A stretch of DNA of 64,000 bases, taken from NCBI GenBank assembly GCA_018266955.1, contig JAFDZI010000031.1:1-64000 (forward strand), written 5' to 3'. The notes beneath the pieces were generated by a model that made no database searches, was not told where the DNA came from, and saw nothing but the letters and a program-made list of their open reading frames with translations. Origin of the DNA: Bacteroidota bacterium (GTDB lineage Bacteria > Bacteroidota > Bacteroidia > Flavobacteriales > Weeksellaceae). Below are positions 36,070 to 64,000 of the stretch, in pieces. A program made the translations under genes and the position numbers. Position 1 is the first letter of the stretch. Each line of letters starts with the position of its first letter.

Positions 36070-36093
36070 TGTGAAAATTTTAAATGTTAAATA

Positions 36094-38887: not shown

Positions 38888-39277
38888 TTAAGAAATAGGT
38901 AGATTAAATGTTGTGTTGTTTAGCATATAGCTTACTTGATTTTGGGAAGTTTTTTCACCAAATTTTAATAATGCTGTAATAATAATTTCCAAATCATTGG
39001 TGGTTATGAGGTAATCTGAATTGTGAATAGTAATTATTAGTATTTCTTCTTGGATAATTTGATAATGTTTAGACATTGCATAATTTATTACAGTATCGAA
39101 AAGACACTCAAAAGTTGCTGGAATTTGGTCAACAACGTAATATTGCCACTTGTCGAAAACGTCTTGATTAATAAGTTCTCCGTTCTGATTTCTTGTAGAC
39201 AAGAATAATGTTACTGGCAAGTTAGTAAGGCAGGTAGCTTTCGTTTTGCTCCAAAATGAGCGAATTAGATTTTTCAT
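38888..39277 (-). CDS. Uncharacterised small protein
   Basis: A 129-residue soluble protein with no motif I recognise. First long gene of the minus-strand cluster that runs down to 34.6 kb. Confidence 0.55.
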   Translation of the reverse strand: MKNLIRSFWSKTKATCLTNLPVTLFLSTRNQNGELINQDVFDKWQYYVVDQIPATFECLFDTVINYAMSKHYQIIQEEILIITIHNSDYLITTNDLEIIITALLKFGEKTSQNQVSYMLNNTTFNLPIS

Positions 39278-39295
39278 ATATTTGGTATTTAAAAT

Positions 39296-39451
39296 TTAAT
39301 TTGTTGAAGAACAAGCCTCCCATCTTATGGGATTAGGTTTAAAATTGGGAGACTTGTGTAAGCAAATGGCAACAGTAAAATATTGAACAATAGTTGCGGA
39401 AACATGAGCTTGTGAAGTATTATTATTTTTATGTATATTATTTTTTTTCAT
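39296..39451 (-). CDS. Possible very small protein
   Basis: A 51-residue frame beginning MKKNNIHKNNN, 18 bases before the next same-strand gene. Composition is plausible but there is no family support. Confidence 0.3.
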   Translation of the reverse strand: MKKNNIHKNNNTSQAHVSATIVQYFTVAICLHKSPNFKPNPIRWEACSSTN

Positions 39452-39568
39452 TATTTTAATCTCACAGGACAAAATTATTTTGTTGCTATGAGTTATGAAA
39501 TGCAAGATGAAACAAGATGAAACAAGATTAGGGCGAGATGGTAACTAATTGACTTTTAATTAGAAAAA

Positions 39569-42500: not shown

Positions 42501-42952
42501 TAATCAAAACAATAATTGATGATTTTAATAATGATTTCGCCAAAGGTACTTTTTTCTATTATAAAGGGTTAATGAAATTAAGTTTTCACAATGATTTTTA
42601 TTGGAAAAATGAAGTTCAACACATTATCAGAAAATGGAGAAAATATGACAGGCGCATAATTACTAACCTCTTATATAGCCATCTTAGGTATTTTGATGTC
42701 ATTAAACGTTTATGTTTGCATATTCTAATTGGTTATAGAAGAGAAATATGTAAAATCTCTTTTAGTGAATATAGTTCGAAAGAGTATGGAGGTCATGTTA
42801 AAATTGCTTTTGGACACCCCGATTTAAGAACGCAAGCTAAACAAATAGCATTTTTAATATTCTCATCACAGAATATTAAAGCACCTGAATGTATCAAAGA
42901 AATTTCCCAACAAATCGTAGAAAACGACATCTATCCCGAATGGAAAATCTAA
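39569..42952 (+). CDS. Large STAND-type P-loop NTPase
   Basis: A 1127-residue protein. A helical N-terminal region of ~240 residues lacks a recognised effector motif. It is followed by a NACHT/STAND-like NTPase with Walker A GIVHGTGGSGKST (about 243-255) and Walker B YLIVIEDWYR (about 298), then a long C-terminal helical region with repeating W-K-x-Y/N units (NNWKKY, VEWKKREY, INWKETSH, NNWMKIN) that look like degenerate repeats used as a sensor. This layout is typical of anti-phage STAND proteins such as Avs. It has no in-frame TGA across 1127 codons, so it is standard code. Confidence 0.7.
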   Translation: MGLDEIKKDEIRLIIKEKYQSASKWSETDYINLEKVFEKKLRNIYLEAQKIYYDVIENIQADDLRTEITALKKTLKKTYNSTKYKSFFDDLTIDGFTLTDKIEDLKADDRSVESFLNNGDIKGSTKDFYAVCIGRKGWKDFTSEINNNLENEYLNIPVSSFIDDPRQLKIAGAIIINQPFIESIKTLHFSMAEFYTAIQSENGLCQFYGIANHLDIERRYYRKLEQAVITSLNQKREYKICGIVHGTGGSGKSTVLRRLCVDIQKNENVTVVWITDVMQFFQYSIPTIKQDLETNNEKKYLIVIEDWYRMFHNDSEIGSELLKQLHKHNNVRIVIGDRTTVGKPYEYYGSDYNLLLSSNENREIIEQIIKKHPVWQEASDRLFESLKNDETTLFLLLFILARISQENSGNTSDNLSDPLVVFKNIIKSDLNFIAKQEEESYKGLAKALYYWACIYVEYKVLISYETFLKIADHYNGKKTSEIRDLFSLWNADEDILDRLKIYVNKSENGQIQFNHDILAEAISNINIDGWKKFGTKIKLDLLDVITEKGDDISASQFLYFMMFKDQNIFLLNREKKIFYIVNLIKKGNRHALYLSRLLEIIRTEKEQNQFAELLWEKEIYSSSFWRNFLSKTSNKEYWINKIFRFENVGKVDPATIKATFYYKYSEPLLKNYLEHFFEENNWKKYPINLIDIFNFFPDENIVQSIIKEILYDVEWKKREYYVISRALSTCNDAMLSQRFSDNILKNKNWLDYHPFLIATAIRYSSIEVQQNFIKSIFKKNFVEINIELLYESLYYSDDNLRRKFALKFLRDINWKETSHVIVPLAIKELSNNEKQNLFKGVLTSNNWMKINYTIIDFCLKDCENEIIKNQFLFKVLNSPFSKEIFETFFVALTHSKDEILKKDWCDNFLMKSACLNDHLQRGIIYKSLEISKDKKTALYYLKDWTENEFRYNVMDNMFLICLSCFENEINLPDEVKLIIKTIIDDFNNDFAKGTFFYYKGLMKLSFHNDFYWKNEVQHIIRKWRKYDRRIITNLLYSHLRYFDVIKRLCLHILIGYRREICKISFSEYSSKEYGGHVKIAFGHPDLRTQAKQIAFLIFSSQNIKAPECIKEISQQIVENDIYPEWKI

Positions 42953-47583: not shown

Positions 47584-47979
47584 CTAAAGAGGCTTTATAC
47601 TTAACTCGCTCTCAGCAACTACATATGCCATACTGAAATTTAAGCTATGTGTGATGGTTATATGCCAAAAGTTAATTCCTAATTTTTCAGAAATCTTTAA
47701 AACATTACCTTGCAGTTGTGCGTATGGTTTACCACTTTCAGATTGTAAAATCTGAACATCGGACAAAGCAATCCCATCTTCCATTCCTGTTCCTAGACAT
47801 TTAAGAATTGCTTCTTTAGCTGCAAATCTCCCACAAAGGAATTTTATTGAATTTGACCATGAGTAAATTTCTAATTCTTTTTTTGAAAAAATTTTTTTTT
47901 GAACAGCGGAGTTTGAATCCCATTTTAATTTTTGTGCCTCTTGATGCTCAACAATATCACACCCTATCCCTATAATCAT
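47584..47979 (-). CDS. acpS: Holo-acyl-carrier-protein synthase
   Basis: A 131-residue phosphopantetheinyl transferase: GIGCDIVEHQEA at the N terminus, RFAAKEAILKCLGTG in the centre (Mg and CoA binding) and ITHSLNFSMAYVVAE at the end, all AcpS signatures. It is the last gene of an operon whose first gene encodes an acyl-carrier-like protein, so it probably arms that protein rather than serving fatty-acid synthesis in general. TAATG overlap with the upstream gene. Ends in TAG. Confidence 0.88.
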   Translation of the reverse strand: MIIGIGCDIVEHQEAQKLKWDSNSAVQKKIFSKKELEIYSWSNSIKFLCGRFAAKEAILKCLGTGMEDGIALSDVQILQSESGKPYAQLQGNVLKISEKLGINFWHITITHSLNFSMAYVVAESELSIKPL

Positions 47980-48569
47980 TAGTTTAAAGAATATCTTATT
48001 TCTCTATTAATTGCATTAAAATGAACAATTCCTCCATTGTTTTTTGTAAGCAGTCTAAAAATTTCATACGCTTTCAAAATAGCAAATTCCCATTCTTTTG
48101 TTGTTCTAATTTTAACCTCGAAATTCTCGGTCATCTCTTTTATAATTCTCAGCGTCGTTCTAGAAACATTAGAAGTATTTGCAAAGAATTTTTTTCTCTT
48201 CGCCTCATTAAAAATAACCATTGAAACAGCTTCTTCAGTAATGATAGCTCTTGCTCCATCTTCAATTCTATCCAACAATTCATTGCTTTTTCTTTTTCTT
48301 TTCATCATGGCTCTTGCACACGGTGACCAACCTAAAAGTGTTGCAAAGGTATAATGAAAAATATCATGATAACGATAAAAATCATTTATATAAGAGTTAT
48401 CGTTAATCACATCTCCAAGTTGTCTTTCATTGTTGAGAACAACTCTTAATTCATTTTTTACATCATTTCCAACTTCAGTAAAAGATAAAGAGAATTCCCT
48501 TGGAAATTGTTCTTGTGGCATAAATCCTTCATCAAAGAATTGCGTGGAATTAATTTTATTTTGTATCAT
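47979..48569 (-). CDS. MazG-like nucleotide pyrophosphohydrolase
   Basis: A 196-residue all-helical protein. The segment FTEVGNDVKNELRVVLNNER (about 30) and INDFYRYHDIFHYTFATLLG (about 62) look like the acidic helices of the MazG/all-alpha NTP pyrophosphohydrolase superfamily. Would remove pyrophosphate from a (possibly modified) nucleoside triphosphate. Overlaps the gene upstream by 14 bases. Confidence 0.55.
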   Translation of the reverse strand: MIQNKINSTQFFDEGFMPQEQFPREFSLSFTEVGNDVKNELRVVLNNERQLGDVINDNSYINDFYRYHDIFHYTFATLLGWSPCARAMMKRKRKSNELLDRIEDGARAIITEEAVSMVIFNEAKRKKFFANTSNVSRTTLRIIKEMTENFEVKIRTTKEWEFAILKAYEIFRLLTKNNGGIVHFNAINREIRYSLN

Positions 48570-49341
48570 TTTGTTTGGTGTTTTCTTTTAAAATAGTATT
48601 AACTCTTTCTGTAACAATGCTATCTATATTAGATTTTTTAATAATACTGTCAACAGATTTTTCAATTCTTTTTTCTTTCAAACCAGCATAATATCCATCA
48701 TTGAATTTGGATGAATCAGTAAATAATTTTAGGAACATCGCAATACCTAAAGTCATAAGTATTCCCAAAGCCCAAAAAACATTTTTCAGATGAGACTCAT
48801 TTGTTTTTATTCTTTCAAGCAAAACATTTGGAGAAGCAAGTTTTCCACTTAAAGCACTTATGTTGTCAGCAGAAATTTCCATTTGACCTTTATGCTTTCC
48901 ATTGTAAGGATCAGAAGAACTTGTTAAGTTACTAAACCAAATCATAAAATATGGGCTTCCTTTATCCAAGATAATCGTAGCAGGGCCTGCATTGTAAACT
49001 GAGAAAATAATTTTTCCTTTGAATCCAGGATCAACATGAAATCCGGAAACATTAATTAGTCCTTTTATCTTTTGACTGAATTTTATAGAAATAAAAGCAA
49101 TTATATTATCTGGTATTGTTACAAACTCATCTGTAATCAAAAGAGCAAATTGTCCTGGTTTTATTACTACTTGAGTATTTTTCTCATCTAATACTTCTTT
49201 TTTTCCTTTTTTAGAATCTGTTAGATATGCTTCGCCACCTAATGATAATTCATAAGCAACATTGTTTATTCTTTTTGAATCGAATTTGTCAATACAATTT
49301 GGAAGAATAGTTTCTAGTTCTCTTGTTCCTAAGTATGCCAT
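48556..49341 (-). CDS. dCTP deaminase/dUTPase-fold protein with membrane anchor
   Basis: A 261-residue protein. Residues ~1-150 resemble dCTP deaminase (VAYELSLG, PGQFALLITDEFVTIP, INVSGFHVDPGFKGKI), but the catalytic R-S-S segment is replaced by SIKFSQKIKG, so standard deaminase activity is doubtful. A helix at about 189-208 (FWALGILMTLGIAMFLKLF) anchors it in the membrane, and a charged coiled tail follows. The anchor is unusual. In the same operon as thymidylate-synthase-like and MazG-like genes. Confidence 0.65.
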   Translation of the reverse strand: MAYLGTRELETILPNCIDKFDSKRINNVAYELSLGGEAYLTDSKKGKKEVLDEKNTQVVIKPGQFALLITDEFVTIPDNIIAFISIKFSQKIKGLINVSGFHVDPGFKGKIIFSVYNAGPATIILDKGSPYFMIWFSNLTSSSDPYNGKHKGQMEISADNISALSGKLASPNVLLERIKTNESHLKNVFWALGILMTLGIAMFLKLFTDSSKFNDGYYAGLKEKRIEKSVDSIIKKSNIDSIVTERVNTILKENTKQNDTK

Positions 49342-49387
49342 ATTTCAGTATATCAGTTTGTTAATGACGTTATAAAATTACAATTTT

Positions 49388-50434
49388 TTATTTATTGAAT
49401 GTAGTTGTTAATAATTCCTTACCAGTGATAATTCTATCATTAATACCCCATTTCGGCGGAAACCAGTAATTGATGGGTTTTGCGTTAGTTTTGTACACTT
49501 GTTTTATTCTCACTCTATCACTCGTTCCCTTAATTTCAGGATGCATTACTCTTGCATATTTATCAGTTTCACAAAAAAGATTTTGACAATCAATAAGCTG
49601 TAGTCTTCTGCCCCAAAGATTTTTAAAAGATAATCCAAGTCTTTCAAATTCTTTTTCTTGCCTATCTGTCATTAATTTAATAATTTCCACATTACTAAGA
49701 CCAGCGGTATCACTAAAACATTTACTAATGCCACCAATAGCACCTGGTCCCGGAACTACAAATTCTGATTCTGAAAAATCTATAATTGTTGAATAATTAA
49801 TATCGATTAACAACTGGTAAGCCAAAAAATCCCCTAGTCCGGGAAAGCTTTTGATGAGTTCAAATGCTTGCTGCATCTTTTTGGCTTCCATAAGTCTTTC
49901 AACGGTATTGTTTTCCAATATATATTCAATCAGTTTTAAATGATTTGAATGTTTTCGGATATGACCAAAACGAGACTTGCAAGATGGCATTATATAAGCT
50001 GCAGAATATATAGTTTTTTTATTTGTAAGAACCTTATTTAATATTTTGTCGTAAAGTTTAAAATCAAAATCTTCATATACGAGGTGACCTAGTTCAGAGG
50101 TCAGTAATTCCCATGTTTCTATTTTATTAAATAATTTAAAAAGTAATATTCTAAAAAGAATCTCTTTTGGTTCGGAAGGTAGATCATCATTATAAATTAC
50201 ATTTCTTATAAGATATTGGCTAACTCTATCCGCAGCACGATAGGTATTTGTAAATTTATATTTACTTATGACAGGATCTTTAGTCCAAGGGAATTCTTTA
50301 CCATTGATTCTATTAAAGAACGTTTCTTGTCTCAATACCGCAAATTTCCAATAACTATCATAAACTTCTGTTACTTTTGCAGGTGCTAAAGGCTTATATA
50401 TTGTAAAACCAGATGTTTTTTTATCCTTGTTCAT
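49388..50434 (-). CDS. Thymine-hypermodification-like enzyme (HMUDK/aGPT-PPlase family)
   Basis: A 348-residue protein with a helix-hairpin-helix centre (IKSFPGLGDFLAYQLLIDIN, about 196-215) and conserved VVPGPGAIGGISKCF. It resembles the helical family annotated as 5-hydroxymethyl-dU DNA kinase helical domain or alpha-glutamyl/putrescinyl-thymine pyrophosphorylase, known from phage thymine hypermodification. I infer the family from memory of its motifs; the location beside a thymidylate-synthase-like gene supports it. Overlaps that gene by 14 bases. Confidence 0.55.
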   Translation of the reverse strand: MNKDKKTSGFTIYKPLAPAKVTEVYDSYWKFAVLRQETFFNRINGKEFPWTKDPVISKYKFTNTYRAADRVSQYLIRNVIYNDDLPSEPKEILFRILLFKLFNKIETWELLTSELGHLVYEDFDFKLYDKILNKVLTNKKTIYSAAYIMPSCKSRFGHIRKHSNHLKLIEYILENNTVERLMEAKKMQQAFELIKSFPGLGDFLAYQLLIDINYSTIIDFSESEFVVPGPGAIGGISKCFSDTAGLSNVEIIKLMTDRQEKEFERLGLSFKNLWGRRLQLIDCQNLFCETDKYARVMHPEIKGTSDRVRIKQVYKTNAKPINYWFPPKWGINDRIITGKELLTTTFNK

Positions 50435-51179
50435 TTCCTTCGTCTGGTTTTAATTTATTTAATAATCTTTTAGCTTCTGTTTTGGTGATTTCCAATTGTT
50501 CTACACCTATAAAACAGTTAAATCGTTCGAGCTCCAATCCACTTTCCCTTGCGATGAATTTACCCAGATTAATTAACCCGAGCCAGTTTCCATAAGCTTT
50601 TTGATATAAATACTGTACAGCATAAAAGCTATTAATTATTAAACCACCAGATTCTGATTTATAAAAAGTCACATGCTGTAAACACGGAAATCCTTGAAAC
50701 ATTTTATTGGTATGATCTCTTAAAGGGTCAAAAGTGGAGGCTTGCAATTTTGACCTTCTTTTTATAGTCGAATTTTGCAGAGAAGAAATAATAATTTCAA
50801 GTTGGTTCACTTGATGAGACTCTCCATAAGATATCAATCTTTCAAAGTAAGTGCCTTTAGCATTTCTTGTATCTAATTTTTTGATTCTTTTTGAACTGCC
50901 AATATAAGATTTATACAATTTTTTACGATCATAATCAAAATATTCATAAAGAGAGTTAGGAAAAATTGTTTCGGAAACAGTTTCAATAGAATTAAAATTA
51001 TTTCTTTTTAGATTAAGATTCAATTCATTTTTAATAATTTTATTTTCGGTAAAATCGGTAAGTGTTAATATTAAAGGGGAGATTTCTTTTCCAGAATAAT
51101 CTACTACCTTCTCAAAAATTTCGAGCCAAGCTGTTGATAAGTTTAAATTATCTCCTTGTATTAAAGTGGGAATATTCAT
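50421..51179 (-). CDS. Thymidylate-synthase-like (nucleotide hydroxymethylase-like) enzyme
   Basis: A 252-residue protein of TS fold. The catalytic Cys lies in GFPCLQHVTFY (about 164-174). The following SFYAVQYLYQKAYGNWLGLI corresponds to the TS substrate-binding RSxDxxxGxxxN region, though the Arg-Ser-x-Asp is altered. That divergence is typical of phage/bacterial dUMP or dCMP hydroxymethylases and other base-modifying TS homologues rather than housekeeping ThyA. Second of the nucleotide enzymes in the operon. Confidence 0.72.
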   Translation of the reverse strand: MNIPTLIQGDNLNLSTAWLEIFEKVVDYSGKEISPLILTLTDFTENKIIKNELNLNLKRNNFNSIETVSETIFPNSLYEYFDYDRKKLYKSYIGSSKRIKKLDTRNAKGTYFERLISYGESHQVNQLEIIISSLQNSTIKRRSKLQASTFDPLRDHTNKMFQGFPCLQHVTFYKSESGGLIINSFYAVQYLYQKAYGNWLGLINLGKFIARESGLELERFNCFIGVEQLEITKTEAKRLLNKLKPDEGNEQG

Positions 51180-51191
51180 TTGTTGTTTTTA

Positions 51192-52040
51192 TTAGTTTTC
51201 AAGATGTCTATAAGTTGCAAATCCAACATAATCTTTAGGCTGTATCCTTACAAAATAACTCATATCTCCAGATGCTGAGGTTATAGAGGTAATTCCAGTT
51301 TTTTTTGCAGAAAATATTGAAGACTTTTTAGTATTTATTTTTTTTTCTAAATAATCTTCATCAACAATATAACCTTCAGGTAGAATAAGATAATTGGATA
51401 TTTCTAAATCAATTGGCATAGGATCGCTTAAGCCATCAATAATCTTAAAATGAGATTTATCTCCCACATTACCAAATTCATTTTTAAAAATTTTAGAAGG
51501 AGTCACTTTAGACAATTCTATAGATTTAAATTCATTTATTAAACTATAAATTCTACAGTGGGTTACTAAAGATTGGTAACCCACTCCAAATACAGAACTG
51601 ATAATATAAAAATCCAAAGGAGATGCAGTTGAGGGATTGATATTACGCTTCAAAAATTCCGACTCGACTCCAGCAATCGGCATTAATAGGTTTGCGGAAA
51701 AGGTATCTACTAATTTTTCATCATCGTCCTTAAATTGATTATTTATGGTATCTTCATTAAGAATATCTAATTTAAGTCCATGGTTAAAAACATGATGCCC
51801 AAGCTCATGTCCACATGTAAAAACACGTCGAGCAAATGGACGCTTGTTCGAAATTAAAATTCTATTGAAATTAGGCTTACTAATATAGAAGCCTTCCATA
51901 TTTATATCAACAAATTGTACATCAACATCGAGTTTTTCGCAAACATCGTAAATATTTATTGGTTGATACAAATCGTAACCTAGCTTTAAACGGATTACAG
52001 AGGCTTTTTTAATTCCTTGAATGTATAAATTATTCATCAT
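51192..52040 (-). CDS. ImmA/IrrE-family metallo-endopeptidase
   Basis: A 282-residue protein with zinc motif TCGHELGHHVFNHG (about 75-88, HExxH) preceded by ISNKRPFARRVF, and a downstream acidic helix FKDDDEKLVDTFSANLLMP, the classical ImmA/IrrE signature. Such peptidases cut a partner XRE repressor; the XRE gene lies 9 bases upstream in the operon. Confidence 0.88.
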   Translation of the reverse strand: MMNNLYIQGIKKASVIRLKLGYDLYQPINIYDVCEKLDVDVQFVDINMEGFYISKPNFNRILISNKRPFARRVFTCGHELGHHVFNHGLKLDILNEDTINNQFKDDDEKLVDTFSANLLMPIAGVESEFLKRNINPSTASPLDFYIISSVFGVGYQSLVTHCRIYSLINEFKSIELSKVTPSKIFKNEFGNVGDKSHFKIIDGLSDPMPIDLEISNYLILPEGYIVDEDYLEKKINTKKSSIFSAKKTGITSITSASGDMSYFVRIQPKDYVGFATYRHLEN

Positions 52041-52049
52041 CCCGTTGTT

Positions 52050-52385
52050 TTACTTTTTTGTAAATACTTTAATGAGGTCAATGAACTTATTCCTATCACC
52101 AACATTCATTTTGTTTAGCTCTCTTGCAACCATTCGCAATTCTTCATCTATTTCAATTTCTTCATCATGTAATATCCAAGATGTACTTACTTTATAGAGC
52201 TCGCTAAATTGAATAATTTCTTCAGCACTTACTTTTCGTTTTCCTGATTCTATTTCAGAAATAGCAGGTCTTTGCAAGTTTAACATTTTTGCTGCATTTT
52301 CTTGAGATAAACCAGATAAAATCCTTGCTTCTTTAAGACGATTGGCGATTTTTTCTCTTTCTGAGATTTGTTCTTTATTTTCCAT
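52050..52385 (-). CDS. XRE-family repressor, partner of ImmA/IrrE
   Basis: A 111-residue protein with helix-turn-helix at about 12-66 (RLKEARILSGLSQENAAKML ... ISEIESGKRKVS) and a helical C-terminal tail. Overlaps the acyl-carrier-like gene by 11 bases. Likely binds the paired GTAAG...CTTAC sites around the operon promoter. Confidence 0.87.
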   Translation of the reverse strand: MENKEQISEREKIANRLKEARILSGLSQENAAKMLNLQRPAISEIESGKRKVSAEEIIQFSELYKVSTSWILHDEEIEIDEELRMVARELNKMNVGDRNKFIDLIKVFTKK

Positions 52386-52665
52386 TTAGCTGTACGGCTT
52401 TTTCTATAAGTTTTTGTGTTGCTTCTTTTATTGTTAATTGCCTATGACTCTTTTTATCATAAAAAATATAGCAATCCTCAGGTATTTCTAAACCTGTTTT
52501 AGCTTCGATAGTAGAAATAGCTACTGAAACCAATACAATGCTTTTGATAAAATTACCAGGACAAAAATCTGAATTTACTTCTTCATCGATGTTCTGCTTC
52601 TGACAGATCATTTTAATAACATCTATAATTTCTGTTTCTATTTCATCTGATTCTTGCGTTTTCAT
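52375..52665 (-). CDS. Acyl-carrier-protein-like protein
   Basis: A 96-residue acidic protein with ACP-like layout: helix 1 (EIETEIIDVIKMICQK), loop, then NFIKSIVLVSVAISTIEAKT followed by GLEIPED. The Ser in K-S-I sits where carrier proteins have the phosphopantetheine Ser of D-S-L; the TGLEIPED segment matches the ACP FGIEIPDE segment. First gene of the operon whose last gene is acpS, which makes the assignment much more credible. Confidence 0.6.
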   Translation of the reverse strand: MKTQESDEIETEIIDVIKMICQKQNIDEEVNSDFCPGNFIKSIVLVSVAISTIEAKTGLEIPEDCYIFYDKKSHRQLTIKEATQKLIEKAVQLNGK

Positions 52666-52871: not shown

Positions 52872-53723
52872 TTAGTACATATTTACTTTCTCCCCGTCAA
52901 ACAGCCACCAATCCTCAAAAACATTTTGTTTAATCTCCTCTAAAGATTTAAATAAGAAGTGAAATTTCGCTTCTGTAAAACGTTCGTCTTCAAGAAGTCT
53001 CTTCATCGCCATTTGCTTATACACCTCGAGTTCGAAGATACAGAGAATACGGCTTCCATAATCTAGCCCAAACATTCTGCTCGGTTGCCCTACTGACAAT
53101 GCCCTCAAATGATGAAATAAAGACTTATGAACACGACTTGTATCATCTCCGTTATACATTTCAATGGCATACAACTCTTTTCTATTCGGTGTTTGAAGCA
53201 TACAAAGTGCATCAGCAATCAAATAATCGTTTTCAGAGATTTGAATGAACGATTCCGCTTTGTAACCCTTCTTCTTTCCCGTAGAAACCTTATCAAAATA
53301 GGTCAAGAATAGTAGCATTTCACAATCATCAATTTTAGAAATTCCTTTGTGTAAAGCGATTTGCACATTAATCGTGTTCATTCTATGGAAGTAATCCTTT
53401 TGATAAAATTGACCTTCATTTTTCGGAAACCTGACAACCTCTTCTCTCAAATAATCTTTAACAATTTCAGCACCATGAGCTTTTAAAAAATGTACATTTT
53501 CGAGTTTCCCTATTGCAGGATGAACTCCGAATGCAATAGAACCCACTAACGGATCTTTCCGAAGTCTGAGTTCTGCAATTTGCTTGTTGAGATTCGCTCT
53601 GTCAGACATAATTCCGAGACCGAGCAACTGCCCTGCTGTTAAATATTTGTAACGAGCCAAAGCTAAAAGGATTTTTTCCTGTGAGGGAGAAAGTGTTTGA
53701 AAGAATAATCTTTTAGTAACCAT
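52872..53723 (-). CDS. Replication-relaxation family protein
   Basis: A 283-residue protein with an N-terminal winged helix (QEKILLALARYKYLTAGQLL) and a C-terminal domain with IADALCML and ELYAIEMYNGDD, resembling the D...ExD/E pattern of plasmid replication-relaxation/mobilisation proteins. Lies next to the TraG-like ATPase on the same strand, fitting a mobilisation or replication role. Confidence 0.7.
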   Translation of the reverse strand: MVTKRLFFQTLSPSQEKILLALARYKYLTAGQLLGLGIMSDRANLNKQIAELRLRKDPLVGSIAFGVHPAIGKLENVHFLKAHGAEIVKDYLREEVVRFPKNEGQFYQKDYFHRMNTINVQIALHKGISKIDDCEMLLFLTYFDKVSTGKKKGYKAESFIQISENDYLIADALCMLQTPNRKELYAIEMYNGDDTSRVHKSLFHHLRALSVGQPSRMFGLDYGSRILCIFELEVYKQMAMKRLLEDERFTEAKFHFLFKSLEEIKQNVFEDWWLFDGEKVNMY

Positions 53724-53788: not shown

Positions 53789-55699
53789 TTAGAGATGAAA
53801 CTTAGGCTTAATACTTCCGCTGGACTCTGTGGAATTTTGAGGTACGGATTCAGAATTTTCTTTTGCTGGAAGAATTGTAGCTTCGGAATCCGATGCCGGA
53901 TTTACAGTTTCATTAGTTGTATCTGCTGAAGTCGATTTGGCTTTTGAAGGAATCAAAGTTGGCGCATGAACTGGATTTGATGTAGGTTCATGCGGCGGAT
54001 TCTGACTTTTATTTTGAAACTGCGTTTGTGTTTGAATTGGATTTACATTGATGATGTCTCTGTAAATTTCCGATTCAGACAACAAATAGGCTTTTAGTTT
54101 TTTCAGTTCTTCTTTGTTACAAAAGTATCTTTTCTGCTGTCTAATTAGAAAATCGGGACTTTTAATTTTTATGGCCGGAAAATGATCGTACTTTAAGTAG
54201 AACTCATAAGGTAACAAACTCTGCATTGCTGAATAAGAAACTCCAAAATCCCCTGCCAATTCTTTAAGTGCAGGCAAGCCGTTGATTCCTGCTAATTTAA
54301 CAGCTGAGTTATTCAAAACTGAATTCTTTAATGATAATGGGATTTGACCGACACTTTGTGTTCCAACAATCAAACGCAATTTGTACTTCCTGGCCTCAGA
54401 AAATATGGTTTGAATACTTCCGCTTTCTGTCGTGAAATTGTGAAATTCATCGATAAACAGATAACAGGGCTTTCTTGAATGTTCGGATTCGAACGCCCTC
54501 TGAAATACAATGCTCAGAATGGTTGCGGAAACAAATCTCCCGAGTGCTCTGCTCGTATCTTCTCCCAATTTTCCTTTGGATAAATTAAACAGGATTATCC
54601 TGCCTTCCTGCATTCCTTTCTTTAGGTCGATATTGCTTTTTCCGTTCATCATGTGGTAGAACATCATATTGTTTTGGAGGTGTTGCAATCTTGTATAGAT
54701 TGCCAGTTTGGTAGGAGCATATTTTTTACTAAGGAATGCTGTTTCAAAAAACTGGCGGTAGACCTGAAATGAAGATTTTTTGCCCAATTCCACCCATTTT
54801 GCATTTTGGGTGTCATCCATAAATATTTGCAAGTCGGATAGCCCACATCCTCCTCTTTCAAGCAAAACTGCTAAACACGGTTTCAGCAGCGCTTCCATTT
54901 GAAGCGACATTCCTGCTTCGGGAATTAATTCCGAAAACGCTTTGGCGAATTGCTGGGACATCACATCAATTAAAAACGGCTCGGAGACTCTCCGCCAAAA
55001 TGGGTTGATGCAGGGAATTTTTTCATTTTCCAATTGCGGATCGATGTACCAAACACGGTCGGGCTTTTGAAGATTGATACGGAATCCTAATAAGCTCTCG
55101 GATAGGTCTCCATGAGGATCCAAAAGAATTATTGAGTGTTGCTGTTTCAATTGGGATTGATGCTGAATTTGGTAAGCAATCGCTTTCATAAATTCCGTCT
55201 TTCCGGAACCTGTCCTGCCGCTAATAAAGCAATGCCTGTCTAAAGCGGAAACGGGAAATGGGACAGGCTTTGGAGCAAAAAATAATGCGTGTAGCGAAGG
55301 TAGACAAAGTGAAAGAAGTTTTTGATAGTCGTGTTCATCATCGCTGGTAAAAGAAGATAAAATTTTCGGGTGTTTCAATAAAAGATTCCAATATTCCAAA
55401 GCAGGCGAAACGCATACTGCCCTCTCCAATTTTTCTTTGCTTGTCGCTTTCTTGGTTCTCATTTCTTCAAATTTCTTGAAGGTCAGAAATCGTTTTTGAA
55501 GTTCTTTGCGGTAATGAATTGAATTTCTATCCAGTCGGGAGAGGTTTTTATCGATTGCTTTTATTCGTTCTGAAATTAAAGCATCCCGACCCGAAGGATG
55601 TCCGGCAAGTAAATAACTTCCTGCAAGTAGATAAGGTTCTTGGTTTCTGATCTTCCATAGAAAGGAAGTTTTATTCCAGAATTGAATTGTTGAATTCAT
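53789..55699 (-). CDS. TraG/VirD4-like conjugative coupling ATPase
   Basis: A 636-residue P-loop ATPase with Walker A ISGRTGSGKTEFMKA (about 160) and Walker B CYLFIDEFHNF (about 412), then GTQSVGQIP, as in DUF87/VirD4/TraG coupling proteins. The N-terminal part (about 1-140) has no obvious membrane helices; the last ~80 residues are a Pro/Ser/Thr-rich disordered tail. It probably feeds plasmid DNA to a type IV secretion channel encoded elsewhere. Standard code throughout. Confidence 0.8.
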   Translation of the reverse strand: MNSTIQFWNKTSFLWKIRNQEPYLLAGSYLLAGHPSGRDALISERIKAIDKNLSRLDRNSIHYRKELQKRFLTFKKFEEMRTKKATSKEKLERAVCVSPALEYWNLLLKHPKILSSFTSDDEHDYQKLLSLCLPSLHALFFAPKPVPFPVSALDRHCFISGRTGSGKTEFMKAIAYQIQHQSQLKQQHSIILLDPHGDLSESLLGFRINLQKPDRVWYIDPQLENEKIPCINPFWRRVSEPFLIDVMSQQFAKAFSELIPEAGMSLQMEALLKPCLAVLLERGGCGLSDLQIFMDDTQNAKWVELGKKSSFQVYRQFFETAFLSKKYAPTKLAIYTRLQHLQNNMMFYHMMNGKSNIDLKKGMQEGRIILFNLSKGKLGEDTSRALGRFVSATILSIVFQRAFESEHSRKPCYLFIDEFHNFTTESGSIQTIFSEARKYKLRLIVGTQSVGQIPLSLKNSVLNNSAVKLAGINGLPALKELAGDFGVSYSAMQSLLPYEFYLKYDHFPAIKIKSPDFLIRQQKRYFCNKEELKKLKAYLLSESEIYRDIINVNPIQTQTQFQNKSQNPPHEPTSNPVHAPTLIPSKAKSTSADTTNETVNPASDSEATILPAKENSESVPQNSTESSGSIKPKFHL

Positions 55700-56742
55700 G
55701 ATAAAATAATTTTTGTGTTTGAGTTTCAGTTTGAGTTTGAATTTTCAGATTAAATTTTTAAAGAATTCAGGTTTGAATTTTAAAAAATTGAGTGGTATTG
55801 CTTAACAAATTGCCTGACTCGGCAGAAGAAATAAAACAGAATAGAGATGCATTTGTTTTTTTGAATTAAAACTTGGCTTAAAAAAGCATGGTTTTGTAAC
55901 GGAAATAAAGAGAAGAATTCTTGGCTTTTGATTGAATTTCCGAGAATGGGTTGTTAAAATATATCGGAACTGTTTCTCACAAAAGTGATGGTGCTACTTA
56001 TGGATTTTTTATGTAAAGTCAAGTTCTTTCGATTAAGGTTTGTCGAGTGTCTATAAAATGTCAATATACTTTAGAATACCTTATTGAGAACCTTTTAGAC
56101 TACCTTTTTAGCAACCTCCAAAGGAAAGCGGAAATCGCCCTGTTTACCGAGCTTTTAACTGCAATTTCTATGCCATAATATCTTCCTTTTTCCACTTTCC
56201 ATTATTACCATCTTCCTATCTATAAAAAGTAAAAATGTAAAGTCAAACTGCATCAACTTCTCTTGCAAGTCAACCAAAAATCCATACAAGCACCATCGCC
56301 GGCAAACATACCAAATCAATTAAAACAAAAATGTAAAGACACAAAAAATCTATCAATGTATCAATCTACCAATTTAACAAAAACAAAAATTCAAAAAATT
56401 AAAATCCTAAAACAAAACGAAAAACAATCAACCAAAAATCACAAACAATGTAAAACAAACTATCAAAAAAAATCAATTCAAAGTCTATCAAAACACAAAA
56501 AATTAACAAAACCTATTCAAAATCAAAACTCAAAAACAGTCAACTGAAAAAATTCTTAACACAAAAAATCTCTAAACAAAATGAAACAATCCAAAACGAC
56601 AAACAACCATCAACAAATTAAAACCCCTTATAACAAAGAATGAAAAAATCAACAACGTAACAATCAACGAGTGACAAAAAAAATTAACAACAATCAAGAA
56701 AAACAAAATCTAAAAATTTAAAAATCCTAAAACAAAAACAAA
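55700..56742. other. Gene-free stretch with G-poor leader
   Basis: About 1 kb with no credible gene. From about 56230 to 56740 the plus strand is almost devoid of G and rich in A and C; AATCCTAAAACAAAA occurs twice (near 56400 and 56726). An open frame at 56263-56547 reflects composition only. It directly precedes eight plus-strand plasmid genes and probably holds their promoter and a long unstructured leader. Confidence 0.6.
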
Positions 56743-56976
56743 ATGGAAAACAAAATCAACAAAACCGTCAATCTAGACTTGACGACTATCGACAGTAACA
56801 TCTTCGCCATTTTTGGAGCGTTCTCCAGACAGGCAAGACGTGAGAAGTGGACGCAACAAGAAATTGATGCCGTCCTCGAAGAAGCCAAAAGCGGAGATTA
56901 TGATCATGCGATTGCTACCATCTGCGAGTATTGTGACCCTGAAGACGATTCTAACTCTGAAAACGAAGAAGACTAA
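56743..56976 (+). CDS. Small plasmid protein, function unknown
   Basis: A 77-residue acidic protein (FAIFGAFSRQARREKWTQQE near the middle, ending in a Glu/Asp tail). Its TAA overlaps the ATG of the next gene (TAATG). It begins a compact plus-strand run of small genes. Confidence 0.7.
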   Translation: MENKINKTVNLDLTTIDSNIFAIFGAFSRQARREKWTQQEIDAVLEEAKSGDYDHAIATICEYCDPEDDSNSENEED

Positions 56977-57581
56977 TGGGAACAAGAAATTTAACCGTGG
57001 TGGTACAAAACCAAGAAGTGAAAGTTGCTCAATATGGGCAGTATGACGGATTCCCCGATTCCCTTGGAGTAAAATTATTAAAATTCTTTAGCAATCCTGA
57101 GAACACCGAAAAATTAAAAGAAATCCTTCCGAAAGTACGTCTTTGGAATGAAAAAGACCAAAAGCTACAGGACGAATTTCTGGAATCAATCGGTTGTACC
57201 AACGGAATACTCAACGACAAGCAAAAGGAACAATTCAAAATGAAGTATCCTTTTCGCTATCGTGAACGCTACGGAAAATTAACCGAAGGGCAAATCTTGG
57301 AAATATTGCTGGAGTTTCATCATCTTGATGAAATCGCAACCATCGATGCTTACGATTTTGCTTCCGACAGTCTGTTCTGTGAATGGGCGTATGTGATTGA
57401 CTACGATAAAAATGCTTTTGAAGTGTACAAAGGTCTCAACACCTCGGGAATTTCAGAAGAAGACCGCTTCTTTCCGCTTTATGACGGAGAAAACGATTAT
57501 TATCCTGTCAAAATCATTGCCTCATTTCCTTTGGATCAACTTCCCGATGAAAACGAATTTCTTTTTCAATGCTCAACGTAG
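56976..57581 (+). CDS. Conserved mobile-element protein (MGTRNLT family)
   Basis: A 201-residue protein starting MGTRNLTVVVQNQEVKVAQY. Proteins with this opening and a following QYDGFPDSLG are widespread on phages and plasmids, without known function. Arg is encoded only by CGT/CGC here. Ends in TAG. Confidence 0.75.
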   Translation: MGTRNLTVVVQNQEVKVAQYGQYDGFPDSLGVKLLKFFSNPENTEKLKEILPKVRLWNEKDQKLQDEFLESIGCTNGILNDKQKEQFKMKYPFRYRERYGKLTEGQILEILLEFHHLDEIATIDAYDFASDSLFCEWAYVIDYDKNAFEVYKGLNTSGISEEDRFFPLYDGENDYYPVKIIASFPLDQLPDENEFLFQCST

Positions 57582-57660: not shown

Positions 57661-58245
57661 ATGAACAAAAACAAAAACCGCCTACTGGTAATGTGCTTTA
57701 TGAAAATGCTTCAGCAAAGAATCGAAAGAGACAAAGTGGAAACCCTAAGTCCTATATTCGGTAACATCTTAAGTAAAGAAGAGCTTCAAAACATTTTGAA
57801 GTGGCTGTACTTGGATAAAGTGCCTGAACACTACGATTTGAAAACGATGGACAGTCAGGATTTGCTTGAAGCCATCGGAGATGACATTCATATCCTTTCG
57901 TATTCCATAGAAAAATGGAAAAAGGAACTGGAAGAGAAAATCACGCCACAGAAAGTCTATGAGGTACTTTGCCAGCTCCAACTCGAAACCCATTATCTGA
58001 TGACCAAAATTTTGGCAGATTGGGACGAGTACGACCACAGCAACTTCAAGGCACTCTGCCGAAAGGCGGGAACTCCTCAACCCTTATTTGCTGTATTTGA
58101 ATCTTCTGTACTAGAAGAGGACAAATATATTTCTGTTCCTCTTTCTAAATATTATGCTACCGAGTGGGAAGCAACATCTAAAAAATCACTTCTCATTTCG
58201 GAAGAACAGTTTGAGGAACATCAGCTCCAGATCCTAAGCCTGTAA
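57661..58245 (+). CDS. Plasmid protein A of a paralogous pair
   Basis: A 194-residue soluble protein. Residues ~35-90 (KEELQNILKWLYLDKVPEHY ... LLEAIGDDIHILSYSIEKW) match residues of the protein encoded at 59477 (KELIEII ... LLQLIGDDFKIISYVMSRW), so the two are paralogues. Unknown function. Confidence 0.7.
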   Translation: MNKNKNRLLVMCFMKMLQQRIERDKVETLSPIFGNILSKEELQNILKWLYLDKVPEHYDLKTMDSQDLLEAIGDDIHILSYSIEKWKKELEEKITPQKVYEVLCQLQLETHYLMTKILADWDEYDHSNFKALCRKAGTPQPLFAVFESSVLEEDKYISVPLSKYYATEWEATSKKSLLISEEQFEEHQLQILSL

Positions 58246-58275: not shown

Positions 58276-58710
58276 ATGAAACAATCAATCTTAGAATTTT
58301 ATTCTAATCTGGACAAAGCCAGAGACAGAGCTTTATGGCTGGAGTTTGAGTACAGAAATATTCCCAAGCATTTTATGGTATTTGATGGGCCTGAAAACAA
58401 TTTCGCCGTTGCCGATTTAGAAACGGCAGAAGAAATGGAAATGACGCATCATTACTACTCTCTTCCTGAAAATTATCAACATCTTTCTTACGGAGATTTG
58501 AAAGGAATTTCGGGCGACCCAGAGATGTTAGGACACTGGGAAAATATCCTTGGAAAGTTCTCGGTAATGGAAGGCGAATTACTTCGCTTTATCCTGAAAT
58601 ATCAGGTTCCTCTAGATAAAATTATTCGTTACGAACTTGGGTGTAGAGGATTTGACCATAACAATCAATGGATTGGATTTAATGAATCTGAAAAACTATG
58701 GCAACAATAA
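58276..58710 (+). CDS. Uncharacterised plasmid protein
   Basis: A 144-residue acidic protein containing MVFDGPENNFAVADLETAEE and a C-terminal CRGFDHNNQWIGF. Small acidic plasmid proteins near a leading region are often anti-restriction proteins, but I cannot show that here. Confidence 0.65.
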   Translation: MKQSILEFYSNLDKARDRALWLEFEYRNIPKHFMVFDGPENNFAVADLETAEEMEMTHHYYSLPENYQHLSYGDLKGISGDPEMLGHWENILGKFSVMEGELLRFILKYQVPLDKIIRYELGCRGFDHNNQWIGFNESEKLWQQ

Positions 58711-59476: not shown

Positions 59477-60079
59477 ATGAACGAAAACAGAACGGCACTC
59501 TTGAAAATATTCTCAGCAGTGCTAAAGGACAGAGTAAAATCTGAACCTCAGTATCAATCCATCAGTACGGAAATGGTCAAACATTTTTCCCGAAAAGAAT
59601 TGATTGAAATCATTACCCACAACTTCGAGGGCGAAGTTCCATCGGAATTTAACCTCGTGGAAATGGAAAATAATGAACTTTTGCAATTGATTGGAGATGA
59701 TTTCAAAATCATTTCTTATGTGATGAGCCGTTGGAGCAAGGAAGTTTCACTACTTCCAACCCTCCAAGAATGGATGCATTCTAAAGTTCATTCATCTCCT
59801 GAAAAGGAAATAGAAGAAAACTTGGAATCAAATTCATCAGAAACTTCATCAGAAAATTTGGAGAATCCTCCAACAAATGAAATGATTTCTGAACATCCAG
59901 ATTCTACTTCTGAAAATTCTGATAAAACCAATTCGGAATCTCCTAAACCTTCGGATGTATCATCTGAAGTTAAAAAATTTGAAGAGAAACTGAATTTCAA
60001 TCCTGATTCTAAACCTGCTTCAGAAAAACCGCATTTCGGTAGGAAGCAGGAGGACAAGAAAACTGAAAAAAGCAAGTAA
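59477..60079 (+). CDS. Plasmid protein A2 with acidic Ser/Pro-rich tail
   Basis: A 200-residue protein. The N-terminal ~95 residues are paralogous to the protein at 57661; the C-terminal half is disordered, rich in Ser, Glu and Pro (ENLESNSSETSSENLENPP) and ends in a Lys-rich patch. Uses CGA for Arg at a position where its paralogue has Glu/Lys, consistent with the standard code. Preceded by the flavobacterial-style intergenic phrase tctaacctctaatatctaaa. Confidence 0.68.
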   Translation: MNENRTALLKIFSAVLKDRVKSEPQYQSISTEMVKHFSRKELIEIITHNFEGEVPSEFNLVEMENNELLQLIGDDFKIISYVMSRWSKEVSLLPTLQEWMHSKVHSSPEKEIEENLESNSSETSSENLENPPTNEMISEHPDSTSENSDKTNSESPKPSDVSSEVKKFEEKLNFNPDSKPASEKPHFGRKQEDKKTEKSK

Positions 60080-60168: not shown

Positions 60169-60289
60169 TTTCTTAAGCAACACTCCCCTGCAATAGATAC
60201 ATTTACTTTATTTACAAAAAGTGAAAATGAGCCATTCCTCTGAAAATAAAATAATTACCAAAAACAAAACTCCCCTGCTCAAAGCAAAA

Positions 60290-61081
60290 ATGAAAACCCC
60301 GATTACGTATTACGGTGGGAAACAGAATTTAGTAAAAGAACTTCTTTGATTAATTCCTCCTCATAAAATCTATGTAGAACCTTATTTTTGAGGCGGAGCA
60401 CTGTTTCGGGCTAAAGAGCCTTCTTCTTCTGAAATTATCAATGACACCAACATGAATGTGGTTAATTTCTACGAAGTTTTGAAGAAAAACTACAAAGCAC
60501 TGCACGAAAAAATCGAAGCCACTCTTCACAGTAGGGAAACTTACAAAAAAGCGCTTTTCATTTACGAAACTCCCCGGCTTTTTGCGGACAATCCTGTAAT
60601 AAGAGCACGAGCTTTCTATGTATCCTGCAATCAATGATTTTGCAGTCGTGTTGGGAGTTGGTGATATGATAAGGGAAAAAGATGTGCTTCGGTTTTTCAG
60701 AATAAAATAGAAAACTTTAAAGAAGAAATGAGCATTCGTCTTTCTTACACGCAAATCGAACAAAACTCGGCTCATCTTGTCATTCAGTCGAGGGATCATG
60801 AACATGCCTTCTTTTACTGTGATCCTCCTTATATCGGGACGAATCAATGACATTATGGAGGTTATTACGAAGACGATTTCATCAGAGACCTCACGGTATT
60901 ATCACAAATCAAGTGAAAGTTTTTATTGAGCAATTTTCCATCTAAAATACTCGATAGGTTTGTAAAGGAGCATCAATGGTATGTAAAAACCTTTGACCAA
61001 CCTTTGTCAGCCTCTCACAACAGCAAGAAGAACTTAAACAAAAGAAAAACGGAAGTGTTGGTGGCGAATTATCCGATATAA
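60290..61081 (+). CDS. DNA adenine methylase (Dam type), UGA read as Gly
   Basis: A 263-residue D12-class methylase if six in-frame UGAs are decoded (60347, 60389, 60635, 60662, 60848, 60914). Motif I is TYYGGKQNLV, the catalytic motif CDPPYIG. The UGAs fall in KELL-G-LIPPH, EPYF-G-GGALF, CNQ-G-FCS, GSW-G-YDK, TNQ-G-HYGGY and QIK-G-KFLL; at least five of these are strongly conserved glycines. CGG at 60407 and 60575 and CGA at 60608 occur where relatives have Trp (VFWAKEP, PWLF, RAWAF). No other frame disruption and a TAA stop. An ATG at 60227 would add 21 residues. Confidence 0.85.
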
Positions 61082-61177: not shown

Positions 61178-61324
61178 ATGAACACCTCAAAACCAAAATA
61201 CAACAATCAAAGAAAAAATGTCGTGATGCGTAAGATCAAACCAAGAATGAAACAGAGAGTTTTCAAAAACGAAGAAATCCCCATCCATAAAATCAGAAAA
61301 GATTACGAAAAATTTAAAGTATGA
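61178..61324 (+). CDS. Small basic protein
   Basis: A 48-residue Lys/Arg-rich protein (RKNVVMRKIKPRMKQRVF) with stop TGA at 61322 sharing bases with an ATG at 61321 (ATGA). If UGA were Gly it would continue for 13 codons to TAA. The ATG at 61173 is in another frame and would run through UGAs into the methylase downstream; I consider that reading less likely. Confidence 0.5.
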   Translation: MNTSKPKYNNQRKNVVMRKIKPRMKQRVFKNEEIPIHKIRKDYEKFKV

Positions 61325-62345
61325 CCGAAGCTTAAAGCATGATTACCCTCCTCCAAATAATCTAAAAGTATTCTGAGCCTTTGTTGGTGGTGGCGGTTCT
61401 ACAATGGGATACAAACTCGCAGGATTTCAACATTTGGGTGGTGTAGAAATAGATGGCAGAATGGCAAAAATTTACCAAACCAACCATTCCCCTGAACATT
61501 TTTATCATGAAGACATCAGAGATTTTAACCAAAGAACTGATTTACCAAAAGAACTCTACGAATTAGATATTTTGGATGGCTCTCCTCCTTGCAGTGCCTT
61601 CTCGATGTCCTGAAAACGTGAGGAATACCGGGGAAGAGAAAAAGTATTTAAAGAATGACAGAAAAAACAAATTTTGGATGAACTTGTGTTTATATTCTGT
61701 GATATGGTAGAAAAGCTTATGCCCAAAGTTGTTGTAATGGAAAATGTTCCGGGACTCGTTGCCGGAAGAGCAAAAAAATATGCCATTGAAGTCTATGAGA
61801 GACTTAATTTGCTATGATATCAAGTCCAAATCTTCAGACTCAATTCAGCTACAATGGGTGTTCCCCAAGCTCGTGAACGTATTTTCTTTATTGCAAGAAA
61901 AAAGAGCTTGGAGCTCCCCCAATTAATTTTGGACTTCAATGAATCCCCTGTATATTTTGGAACAATTGCCGACAGAAATTCTACCACCCATCCTCCGCTC
62001 CGACCTTCCATTGAAAAAAGACGACCGTTTGTAGAATACGGAGATCAGAATTTAAAGTTTGCCGATGCAAAATACAGAAATTTAAATACCTTCAATGCGT
62101 TCTTCAGTACCTATATTTTGTACGATGATATTGTTGCTCCTACATTGACTTCAAGTGGAGCATGAGTATATTACCCCGAAAAACGCAATCTTAATGATAC
62201 CGAATATATTCGTATGAGTAGTTTTCCAAACGATTTTGATTTTTGCAACATATCAACCCGTTATGTTTGCGGAATGAGCGTTCCTCCATTGATGACCGCT
62301 AGAATTGCAAATGAAATAAGAAAACAATGGTTTTCAATAATTTAG
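61321..62345 (+). CDS. DNA cytosine methylase (Dcm type), UGA read as Gly, frameshifted start
   Basis: A C5-methylase of ~340 residues if five UGAs are decoded (61374, 61611, 61656, 61815, 62163). Motif I is FVGGGGSTMGYKLAGF, PC motif DGSPPCSAFSMS, ENV motif VVMENVPGLV, then GVPQARERIFFI. UGAs give KVF-G-AF, SMS-G-KRE, FKE-G-QKK, NLL-G-YQV and SGA-G-VYY; SMSGKRE and FKEGQ are conserved glycines. CGG at 61629 lies in EEY-x-G, where Trp is typical. ATG at 61321 opens MTEA, but one base is missing near 61333 to reach the conserved frame. Ends in TAG. Confidence 0.75.
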
Positions 62346-62905: not shown

Positions 62906-63427
62906 ATGGAAATTTCAAAATCAGAGGCAGAAAGACTGCTGGGTGTAAGTTCCACCACCTTGTATAATCGGGCAAACAAAATGAATATCAAATTCATCAA
63001 TAAAGTAGACTCCAAAGGAAAGAGCAGTTACCTTGCCCAATCCGATTTGGAGAAAATGGCAGAAGCAATGGGTAAGACATTGAAAACCGAATCCGCCCCT
63101 GAAAAAGAAAATCCGAAAACGGAAAGCAGAGGAGCAGAGGAGTGAGAAGCCCAAGAATTTGTACAGGAAAAATTTATGCTTCAACTCAAAATCAAGGAAC
63201 AGGAAGAGGAGATCAAGTCCAACAACCAAATCATTGAATTTTATAAAGAAAATAATTCGCAATTGCTGATGAACCAACAGGAAGCTAAAAATCAAATCAC
63301 TACTATGTACTGAGAAATGCTTGGAATTTCGAAAAAAGCCACGACCTACTATATTATCTCTATTGCCGTATCGGTTGTGTTACTCCTGTTTGTTGTTCTT
63401 GTTGCCACAGGAAACCTGAAATTTTAA
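62906..63427 (+). CDS. HTH, coiled-coil, membrane-tail protein (Par-like), UGA read as Gly
   Basis: A 173-residue protein if UGAs at 63143 and 63311 are decoded. N-terminal HTH (ISKSEAERLLGVSSTTLYN, about 3-60), central coiled coil (LQLKIKEQEEEIKSNNQ) and a C-terminal membrane helix (YYIISIAVSVVLLLFVVLVA). The layout recalls the single-protein plasmid partition protein Par of staphylococcal pSK1 (HTH plus coiled coil). UGAs fall at AEE-G-EAQEF and TMY-G-EMLG. CGG near 62968 (LYN-x-ANK) could be Trp or Arg. ATG at 62906 begins the HTH; other in-frame starts lie upstream. Confidence 0.65.
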
Positions 63428-63443
63428 AGCAGAGGAGTCTGCA

Positions 63444-63580
63444 ACCCTGAAAATGTAGCCGTTGATAACATTACAAATGATAGATTTGGATGGTAAAATG
63501 ATAAAAACCAAGCAAAAAAGCCAATTTTAAAATATAGAACAGTTCTAATAAAATCCACCCTAAAAATGTAGCCGTTCATA
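63444..63580 (+). repeat. 24-bp direct repeat pair
   Basis: ACCCTGAAAATGTAGCCGTT at 63444 (24 bases in all) recurs at 63557 with two mismatches. Between them and the iterons (63581-63793) the DNA is very AT-rich and gene-free, as expected of a DNA-unwinding region. Confidence 0.6.
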
Positions 63581-63793
63581 GCTAAAAGCCATAAACAGAA
63601 AGCTATGAGCTGATAAAAAAAACCTTTTCCCATAATTGCTTTTAGACTTTCCCCTATAAAAACAAACCTAAAAATTATACAACAAAAGTTTTATTTATCC
63701 CTGTTATAAGATGTTATATATTTTAAGTTCTTATATTGTTTATAGCCCGAAAGTTTGTTTATGACAAAGGATTTACGAAGCATTTGGTATCAA

Positions 63794-63940
63794 ATTCAGG
63801 GTTAAGCATACCAAAAACAGGGTAAAGTATAACCGACTTGGGGCGAAGTATACCATTTTCAGGGTGGAAAGGCTACTAAAACAAGGGATATTGGCTACTT
63901 ATTTGGGGCATATCATCAAATATAAAAAATTCAGGGTGCA
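63794..63940 (+). repeat. Iteron array, probable plasmid origin
   Basis: Seven units of the type TTCAGGGTNAAGNATACC with the GGG core at 63799, 63820, 63841, 63862, 63885, 63906 and 63934, that is 21-bp spacing for the first four and 21-28 after. Two-helical-turn spacing is typical of iterons bound by a Rep initiator. An ATG at 63980 (MKIKNIF) could start the rep gene, cut by the window edge. Confidence 0.72.
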
Positions 63941-64000
63941 AGACAAACAAGCGAAAGAAGTAGGAAACACGATCAGATAATGAAAATTAAAAATATTTTT

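What the first reader, a model, noticed from the sequence alone, without database searches (positions are those of the whole stretch)
61321..62345. Cytosine methylase gene with five UGA=Gly codons and a start-proximal frameshift
The C5-methylase motifs lie in one frame across about 1 kb with only TGA interruptions; SMSGKRE, FKEGQ and LLGYQV are normal glycines. The expected start (ATG 61321, overlapping the upstream stop as ATGA) is one base out of frame with the body. This may mean the gene is already decaying in this host, a single sequencing error in a T/A run, or start elsewhere. The mix of a preserved recoded body and a broken start hints at a gene that arrived recently and is not selected.
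Basis: partly seen in the sequence, partly recalled or inferred. Interest (0 to 1): 0.8.

Follow-up and report, generated by a model that had tools for sequence, protein, structure and literature searches.

The report
Mobile element written in two codes
A mobile DNA element in the genomes of ordinary Chryseobacterium-type bacteria carries a set of working genes spelled in the altered genetic code of the unrelated Absconditabacteria (UGA = glycine, CGA/CGG = tryptophan), next to genes in the standard code, which suggests that it lives alternately in both kinds of cell.

Summary
The cytosine methylase is real and reads through five in-frame TGA codons as glycine. It is neither decaying nor alone. 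Homologous elements lie in eight of 320 genomes of the family, mostly Chryseobacterium. In them a D12 adenine methylase, this C5 methylase, an HTH gene, a Rep3 initiator and, in some copies, a serine recombinase and the coupling ATPase carry in-frame TGA. At 76 alignable TGA columns Gly is the majority residue 47 times (P 6e-44); dN/dS is 0.03-0.15. In the same genes CGA and CGG align with Trp (14 of 24 columns, P 1e-24), never mainly with Arg. UGA=Gly plus CGA/CGG=Trp is the published Absconditabacteria code. Other genes of the element avoid TGA (0 against 556 GGN codons). Seven hosts examined have intact RF2; no UCA tRNA was found. The 'start frameshift' is a conserved overlap: a small ORF (61178-61360) precedes a methylase that starts near 61305 (ACG here, ATG in relatives). 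Best explanation: a cross-phylum element whose recoded genes work in an Absconditabacteria-code cell. The code is shown; the shuttling is inferred. I could not search Absconditabacteria genomes.

The parts
61305..62345 (+). C5 cytosine methylase in the Absconditabacteria code: TGA=Gly at 61374, 61611, 61656, 61815, 62163; CGA/CGG=Trp at 61326, 61629, 62001, 62022
   Evidence: PF00145; codon columns; start placed by the switch of constraint and by ATG in relatives
61178..61360 (+). Small ORF in another frame, overlapping the methylase start; conserved up to 61304; two TGA in its unconstrained tail
   Evidence: dN/dS 0.05 up to 61304, 1.14 after it; present in ten loci
60227..61081 (+). D12 (Dam/DpnII-type) adenine methylase, recoded: TGA=Gly at 60347, 60389, 60635, 60662, 60848, 60914; CGR=Trp at 60407, 60575, 60608 (start ATG 60227 or 60290)
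   Evidence: PF02086, 88.7 bits with CGR=Arg, 93.2 with CGR=Trp; clade support 0.995
62906..63427 (+). HTH_17-type gene with C-terminal hydrophobic segment, recoded (two TGA)
   Evidence: six copies with two or three TGA each
63428..64000 (.). Region with repeats of the type CCCTGAAAATGTAGCC and TTCAGGGT, probable iteron origin in front of Rep3 (Rep3 gene itself at contig 64076-65344, one TGA, beyond the window)
   Evidence: sequence; Rep3_N/Rep3_C
53789..55699 (-). Coupling-protein ATPase (TrwB/TraD/TraG type), standard code in this copy; recoded with 8-9 TGA in G131, G119, G166b
   Evidence: alignment; counts
52872..53723 (-). Gene whose G131 homolog weakly matches Replic_Relax; standard code here, recoded in G131, G119, G166b
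   Evidence: E 0.001, below Pfam cut-off
56976..57581 (+). TGA-free gene of unknown function, present in all nine element copies
   Evidence: phrog_30528
57661..58245 (+). TGA-free gene of unknown function, resembles 59477-60079
   Evidence: no family match
58276..58710 (+). TGA-free gene of unknown function
59477..60079 (+). TGA-free gene of unknown function
56165..56348 (.). Conserved non-coding block between the coupling ATPase and the TGA-free genes; possible oriT (inference); not a tRNA

Best explanation
The methylase belongs to a mobile element of Weeksellaceae (the family of Chryseobacterium and relatives) that holds genes in two genetic codes. One set (D12 and C5 methylases, HTH gene, Rep3 initiator; in some copies also a large serine recombinase, the coupling ATPase and a Replic_Relax-like gene) is written in the Absconditabacteria code: UGA=Gly, CGA and CGG=Trp. 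The other set is written in the standard code. Shown: both reassignments, purifying selection on both sets, presence inside long contigs of independent genomes, intact RF2 in the hosts, and no UCA tRNA in the hosts and elements examined. Inferred: the recoded genes are translated in an Absconditabacteria (or same-code) cell that lives with, or preys on, Chryseobacterium; there Rep3 replicates the element and the methylases mark its DNA. In Chryseobacterium the element sits integrated, its recoded genes silent or truncated, and the standard-code genes act. It would move between the two by conjugation or uptake during contact.
For: TGA columns: 47 of 76 Gly, P 6e-44, dN/dS 0.03-0.15. CGA 17 columns and CGG 20 columns, Trp 9 and 13, Arg 0, against Arg 15 of 25 and 9 of 14 in standard-code homologs; taken together 14 of 24 Trp, P 1e-24. 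This pair of changes is the Absconditabacteria code (PMC8629427). Standard set: 0 TGA against 556 GGN codons, CGR columns mainly Arg/Lys, dN/dS of the standard-code coupling ATPase 0.11. RF2 intact in seven hosts. No UCA tRNA. Copies in eight genomes, ten D12 copies, one clade with support 0.995.
Against: No copy has been seen in an Absconditabacteria genome; those genomes could not be searched here. No partnership between the two groups was found in the library. Some recoded copies carry the coupling ATPase in the Absconditabacteria code, so how they leave Chryseobacterium is unclear. Element ends are not fixed. The cells in which the genes are translated are inferred, not observed.
Confidence: 0.62

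Rival explanations
1. One-way relics: the recoded genes came from Absconditabacteria-code plasmids by repeated transfer into Chryseobacterium elements, where they are never translated. All the purifying selection on them happened in the donors.
For: No decoder in the hosts. Explains the code.
Against: The recoded and standard genes keep the same order and neighbours in many copies and both sets are selected. Copies show almost no decay: 203 TGA cells but only 7 TAA/TAG cells in the six alignments, several of them upstream of the start or in standard-code homologs.
Confidence: 0.2
2. Code switching inside Chryseobacterium: the element or a helper phage or plasmid supplies unrecognised tRNAs that read UGA as Gly and CGA/CGG as Trp, so that these genes are made only in a special state.
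For: Phages with stop-codon recoding in standard-code hosts are known (PMC10746230). Genes are either rich in TGA or free of it.
Against: No UCA tRNA in the elements or in C. limigenitum and G109. It would need three codons changed, two against the host's own Arg tRNAs, and the changes match a known cellular code exactly. RF2 is intact.
Confidence: 0.12
3. A decaying or mis-sequenced methylase.
For: ATG 61321 is out of frame with the methylase body.
Against: The same layout occurs in ten related loci, constraint switches frames at 61305, dN/dS is about 0.09, and TGA but hardly ever TAA/TAG recurs in independent assemblies.
Confidence: 0.02

Closest known systems
Absconditabacteria (SR1) genetic code: UGA=Gly (Campbell 2013), CGA/CGG=Trp (Shulgina and Eddy 2021, PMC8629427)
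   Same: Both reassignments are seen in the recoded genes.
   Different: Here the genes lie in the genomes of Bacteroidota that use the standard code, have RF2 and lack a UCA tRNA as far as tested.
Phages and prophages of Gracilibacteria and Absconditabacteria (PMC10746230)
   Same: Mobile DNA dense in in-frame TGA=Gly; some such phages are linked by spacers to standard-code bacteria.
   Different: Those linked to both kinds of host mostly avoid in-frame TGA; here one element keeps two gene sets in two codes and sits in the standard-code host.
Code-switching phages (Lak, crAss-like) in standard-code hosts
   Same: Dense in-frame stop codons in part of the genes.
   Different: They carry suppressor tRNAs and change one stop codon; here no such tRNA was found and two sense codons are changed as well.
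C5 and D12 methylases of Flavobacteriia phages (tooticki, phi18:3, FPSV-S2, Peternella)
   Same: Homologs at 41-46% identity; methylase pairs or runs occur in them too.
   Different: The phage genes are annotated in the standard code with an ATG start.

Membership tests
Genes in the Absconditabacteria genetic code | UGA read as Gly | tested here: met
   47 of 76 TGA columns Gly, P 6e-44; seven D12 columns 47/47 Gly in standard-code homologs
Genes in the Absconditabacteria genetic code | CGA and CGG read as Trp | tested here: met
   Arg is never the majority; control homologs Arg
Genes in the Absconditabacteria genetic code | The resident cell uses that code (UCA-Gly tRNA, no RF2) | tested here: not met
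   RF2 intact in seven hosts; no UCA tRNA in C. limigenitum or G109
Genes in the Absconditabacteria genetic code | Homologous element present in Absconditabacteria genomes | not tested
   No handle to those genomes could be obtained; the one genome-contig scan returned only C. limigenitum
Code-switching element with its own suppressor tRNA | Element-borne suppressor tRNA | tested here: not met
C5 cytosine methylase (PF00145) | Profile match over the whole domain, with motif I and PC motif | tested here: met
   151 bits, profile 6-323 of 324; GGGGS and SPPCS in P0008
D12 adenine methylase (PF02086) | Profile match with FxGGG and DPPY | tested here: met
   93 bits; FGGGA and DPPY in P0010
Mobilisable or integrative element | Coupling ATPase, replication initiator, recombinase | tested here: met
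   TrwB/TraD type and Rep3; serine recombinase in G131, G119, G166, G177
Mobilisable or integrative element | Relaxase, T4SS and defined attachment sites | tested here: inconclusive
   Only a weak Replic_Relax match; ends not fixed

The most novel reading that the evidence does not exclude
A bilingual mobile element shuttles between Chryseobacterium and an unseen Absconditabacteria partner. It keeps one gene set per genetic code, so that the code difference itself decides which set works in which host. It would also be a genomic tracer of an unknown predator-prey or epibiont relation across phyla.
Probability: 0.55. Interest if true: 0.97.

Novelty: categorically new. Interest (0 to 1): 0.93.

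Why it matters
Different genetic codes are thought to be a barrier to gene exchange. An element that keeps selected genes in two codes side by side would show how mobile DNA can cross that barrier. It would point to a physical association between Chryseobacterium, a genus that can be grown, and Absconditabacteria, whose hosts are mostly unknown and which are hard to grow. It also shows that annotation in code 11 discards real genes as pseudogenes.

Tried and rejected
Suppressor tRNA on the element or in the host: ARAGORN normal and relaxed, RF00005 on four genomes (anticodons read for nearly all hits in C. limigenitum and G109, in part for G177; the G000 draft lacks some ordinary tRNAs), a pattern TTCA...GGTTCRANYC on eight genomes, Rfam at low threshold: nothing with a conserved UCA anticodon. 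A tRNA rebuilt at an attachment junction: no T-arm half near the element ends of G109, but the ends are not fixed. A 13-14 base repeat of the tRNA-His 3' part at contig 75299 was taken as a possible att site and dropped, since the gene there is of the rve transposase type. UGA=Trp: TGA columns are Gly. TGA-free genes as a recoding factor: no family match, not pursued. AlphaFold model of D12 from seven sequences: mean pLDDT 37, not usable. Relatives of the recombinase and of gene 56976-57581 in viral contigs: none. Order-wide search with gene 56976-57581: only G000, G119 and G131 among 395 sampled genomes.

Full report
OBSERVATION. The window lies on contig C24 (91,070 bases) of a 2.45 Mb draft genome, G000. 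Read with TGA as a sense codon, a C5 methylase runs to 62345 with five TGA codons in its body. The gene before it (D12 adenine methylase, six TGA) and the gene after it (HTH_17 type, two TGA) are open only in the same way. Beyond the window follows a Rep3 initiator with one TGA.

DISTRIBUTION. D12 homologs with 3-8 in-frame TGA occur in eight of 320 genomes of the family: G000 and seven genomes of one other genus, g20; ten copies in all. The copies lie in long contigs, such as the 3.46 Mb contig of the near-complete G109, whose right flank holds a gene with the Bacteroidota secretion tail. The element core (52.8-65.4 kb in G000) is shared with up to 90% DNA identity. Recoded D12 copies form one clade (support 0.995) next to standard-code methylases from viral contigs.

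UGA IS GLYCINE. Codon alignments of six gene families give 76 TGA columns with sense residues in other sequences. Gly is the majority in 47, against a background of 4.4% (binomial P 6e-44). The commonest codons facing TGA are GGA, GGT, GGG and GGC. Seven D12 TGA columns are Gly in 47 of 47 standard-code homologs. The first P-loop glycine of the coupling ATPase and glycines of the recombinase G.SG motif are TGA in some copies and GGN in others. dN/dS with TGA=Gly is 0.03-0.15 in every gene tested; some dS values are near saturation. The binomial test treats columns as independent, which related copies strain, but the margin is very large.

CGA AND CGG ARE TRYPTOPHAN. In the recoded genes CGA and CGG align with Trp or, less often, with Leu, His, Tyr, Phe and a few others, and in no column with Arg as the majority. 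Counted together, 14 of 24 columns are Trp (P 1e-24). CGT and CGC mostly face Arg; AGA and AGG face Arg or Lys. Standard-code homologs in the same alignments use CGA and CGG as Arg. With this reading the methylase begins KYDWSLK, as in phages tooticki (YDWTLK) and FPSV-S2 (YNWSLQ), D12 reads FWAKE and RAWAFYV as standard homologs do, and matches to phage homologs rise slightly; the Pfam score rises for D12 and is unchanged for C5. UGA=Gly together with CGA and CGG=Trp is the code published for Absconditabacteria (PMC8629427, read).

TWO CODES IN ONE ELEMENT. The genes between 56731 and 60079, and the coupling ATPase and its neighbour in six copies, contain no TGA against 556 GGN codons, while recoded genes use TGA for about 28% of Gly. 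Their CGR columns are mostly Arg or Lys. In G131, G119 and G166b the coupling ATPase and the Replic_Relax-like gene are recoded instead. G131, G119, G166 and G177 also carry a serine recombinase with 11-15 TGA.

NO DECODER FOUND. RF2 is intact in seven hosts. No tRNA with a UCA anticodon was found in C. limigenitum or G109, or in the ten element regions of about 40 kb. Limits: the Rfam search scored the best 150 candidates per genome, and the G000 draft lacks some ordinary tRNAs and so does not count.

THE START. Ten related loci show a small ORF followed by the methylase in another frame. Among G000, G109, G166a and G166b, constraint lies on the small-ORF frame up to 61304 and on the methylase frame from 61305. 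That codon is ATG in G153a, G153b, G177 and in loci L007 and L008, ACG in the four close copies, ATA in L006. Either translation starts there or ribosomes shift by +1 there; this is open.

MECHANISM. Shown: two selected gene sets in two codes in one element. Inferred: the recoded set works in an Absconditabacteria-code cell, the standard set in Chryseobacterium. One suppressor tRNA cannot explain it, since two sense codons are changed as well. Not shown: the element in an Absconditabacteria cell, any transfer, any protein product.

KNOWN OR NEW. UGA=Gly is known in Absconditabacteria, Gracilibacteria and their phages. Phages thought to serve both kinds of host mostly avoid in-frame TGA (PMC10746230). 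The library searches showed no report of Absconditabacteria-coded genes in an element of a standard-code bacterium; the library lacks most subscription papers and preprints.

Noticed in passing
L087 (G099:C18:14400-24000), L180-L181 (G153:C3), L257 (G177:C11:346000-358000): Islands of many phage-like tRNA genes in several Chryseobacterium genomes, with a conserved tRNA-like piece (GTTCAATGGTAGAACAATAGATTTTT..GGTTCGAATC) that seems to lack an anticodon arm.
   Followed up: partly
L175 (G153:C1:316800-317100): Two neighbouring tRNA-like genes with eight-base anticodon loops (CTTC), possible frameshift-suppressor tRNAs.
   Followed up: no
L085 (G000:C2:59909-59986): tRNA-Val-like gene with anticodon TTA (would read UAA), next to two normal tRNA-Val; probably degenerate (41.5 bits).
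   Followed up: no
window 47979-52665: Cassette with MazG_C, dCTP-deaminase-like, 5-hmdU DNA kinase helical domain and IrrE-type peptidase genes, at a place where other element copies carry other genes: a cargo spot.
   Followed up: no
window 27246-42952: Probable defence island: GHKL ATPase, AAA_21/AbiEii-type pair, serine recombinase in the standard code, nSTAND NTPase.
   Followed up: no
L133:3268-4446 (G119) and L143-L144 region (G166): A protein family of about 390 residues with three or four in-frame TGA near the element; possibly a further recoded gene.
   Followed up: partly
L127:8049-8462 and homologs in G166, G153, G131, G177: A 138-residue gene of unknown function found almost only in genomes with the element, at one or other end of it and in either orientation.
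   Followed up: partly
L186 (NZ_CP156790.1): The only plasmid-collection relative (35%) of element gene 56976-57581 lies in an Acinetobacter plasmid with phage-like genes.
   Followed up: partly
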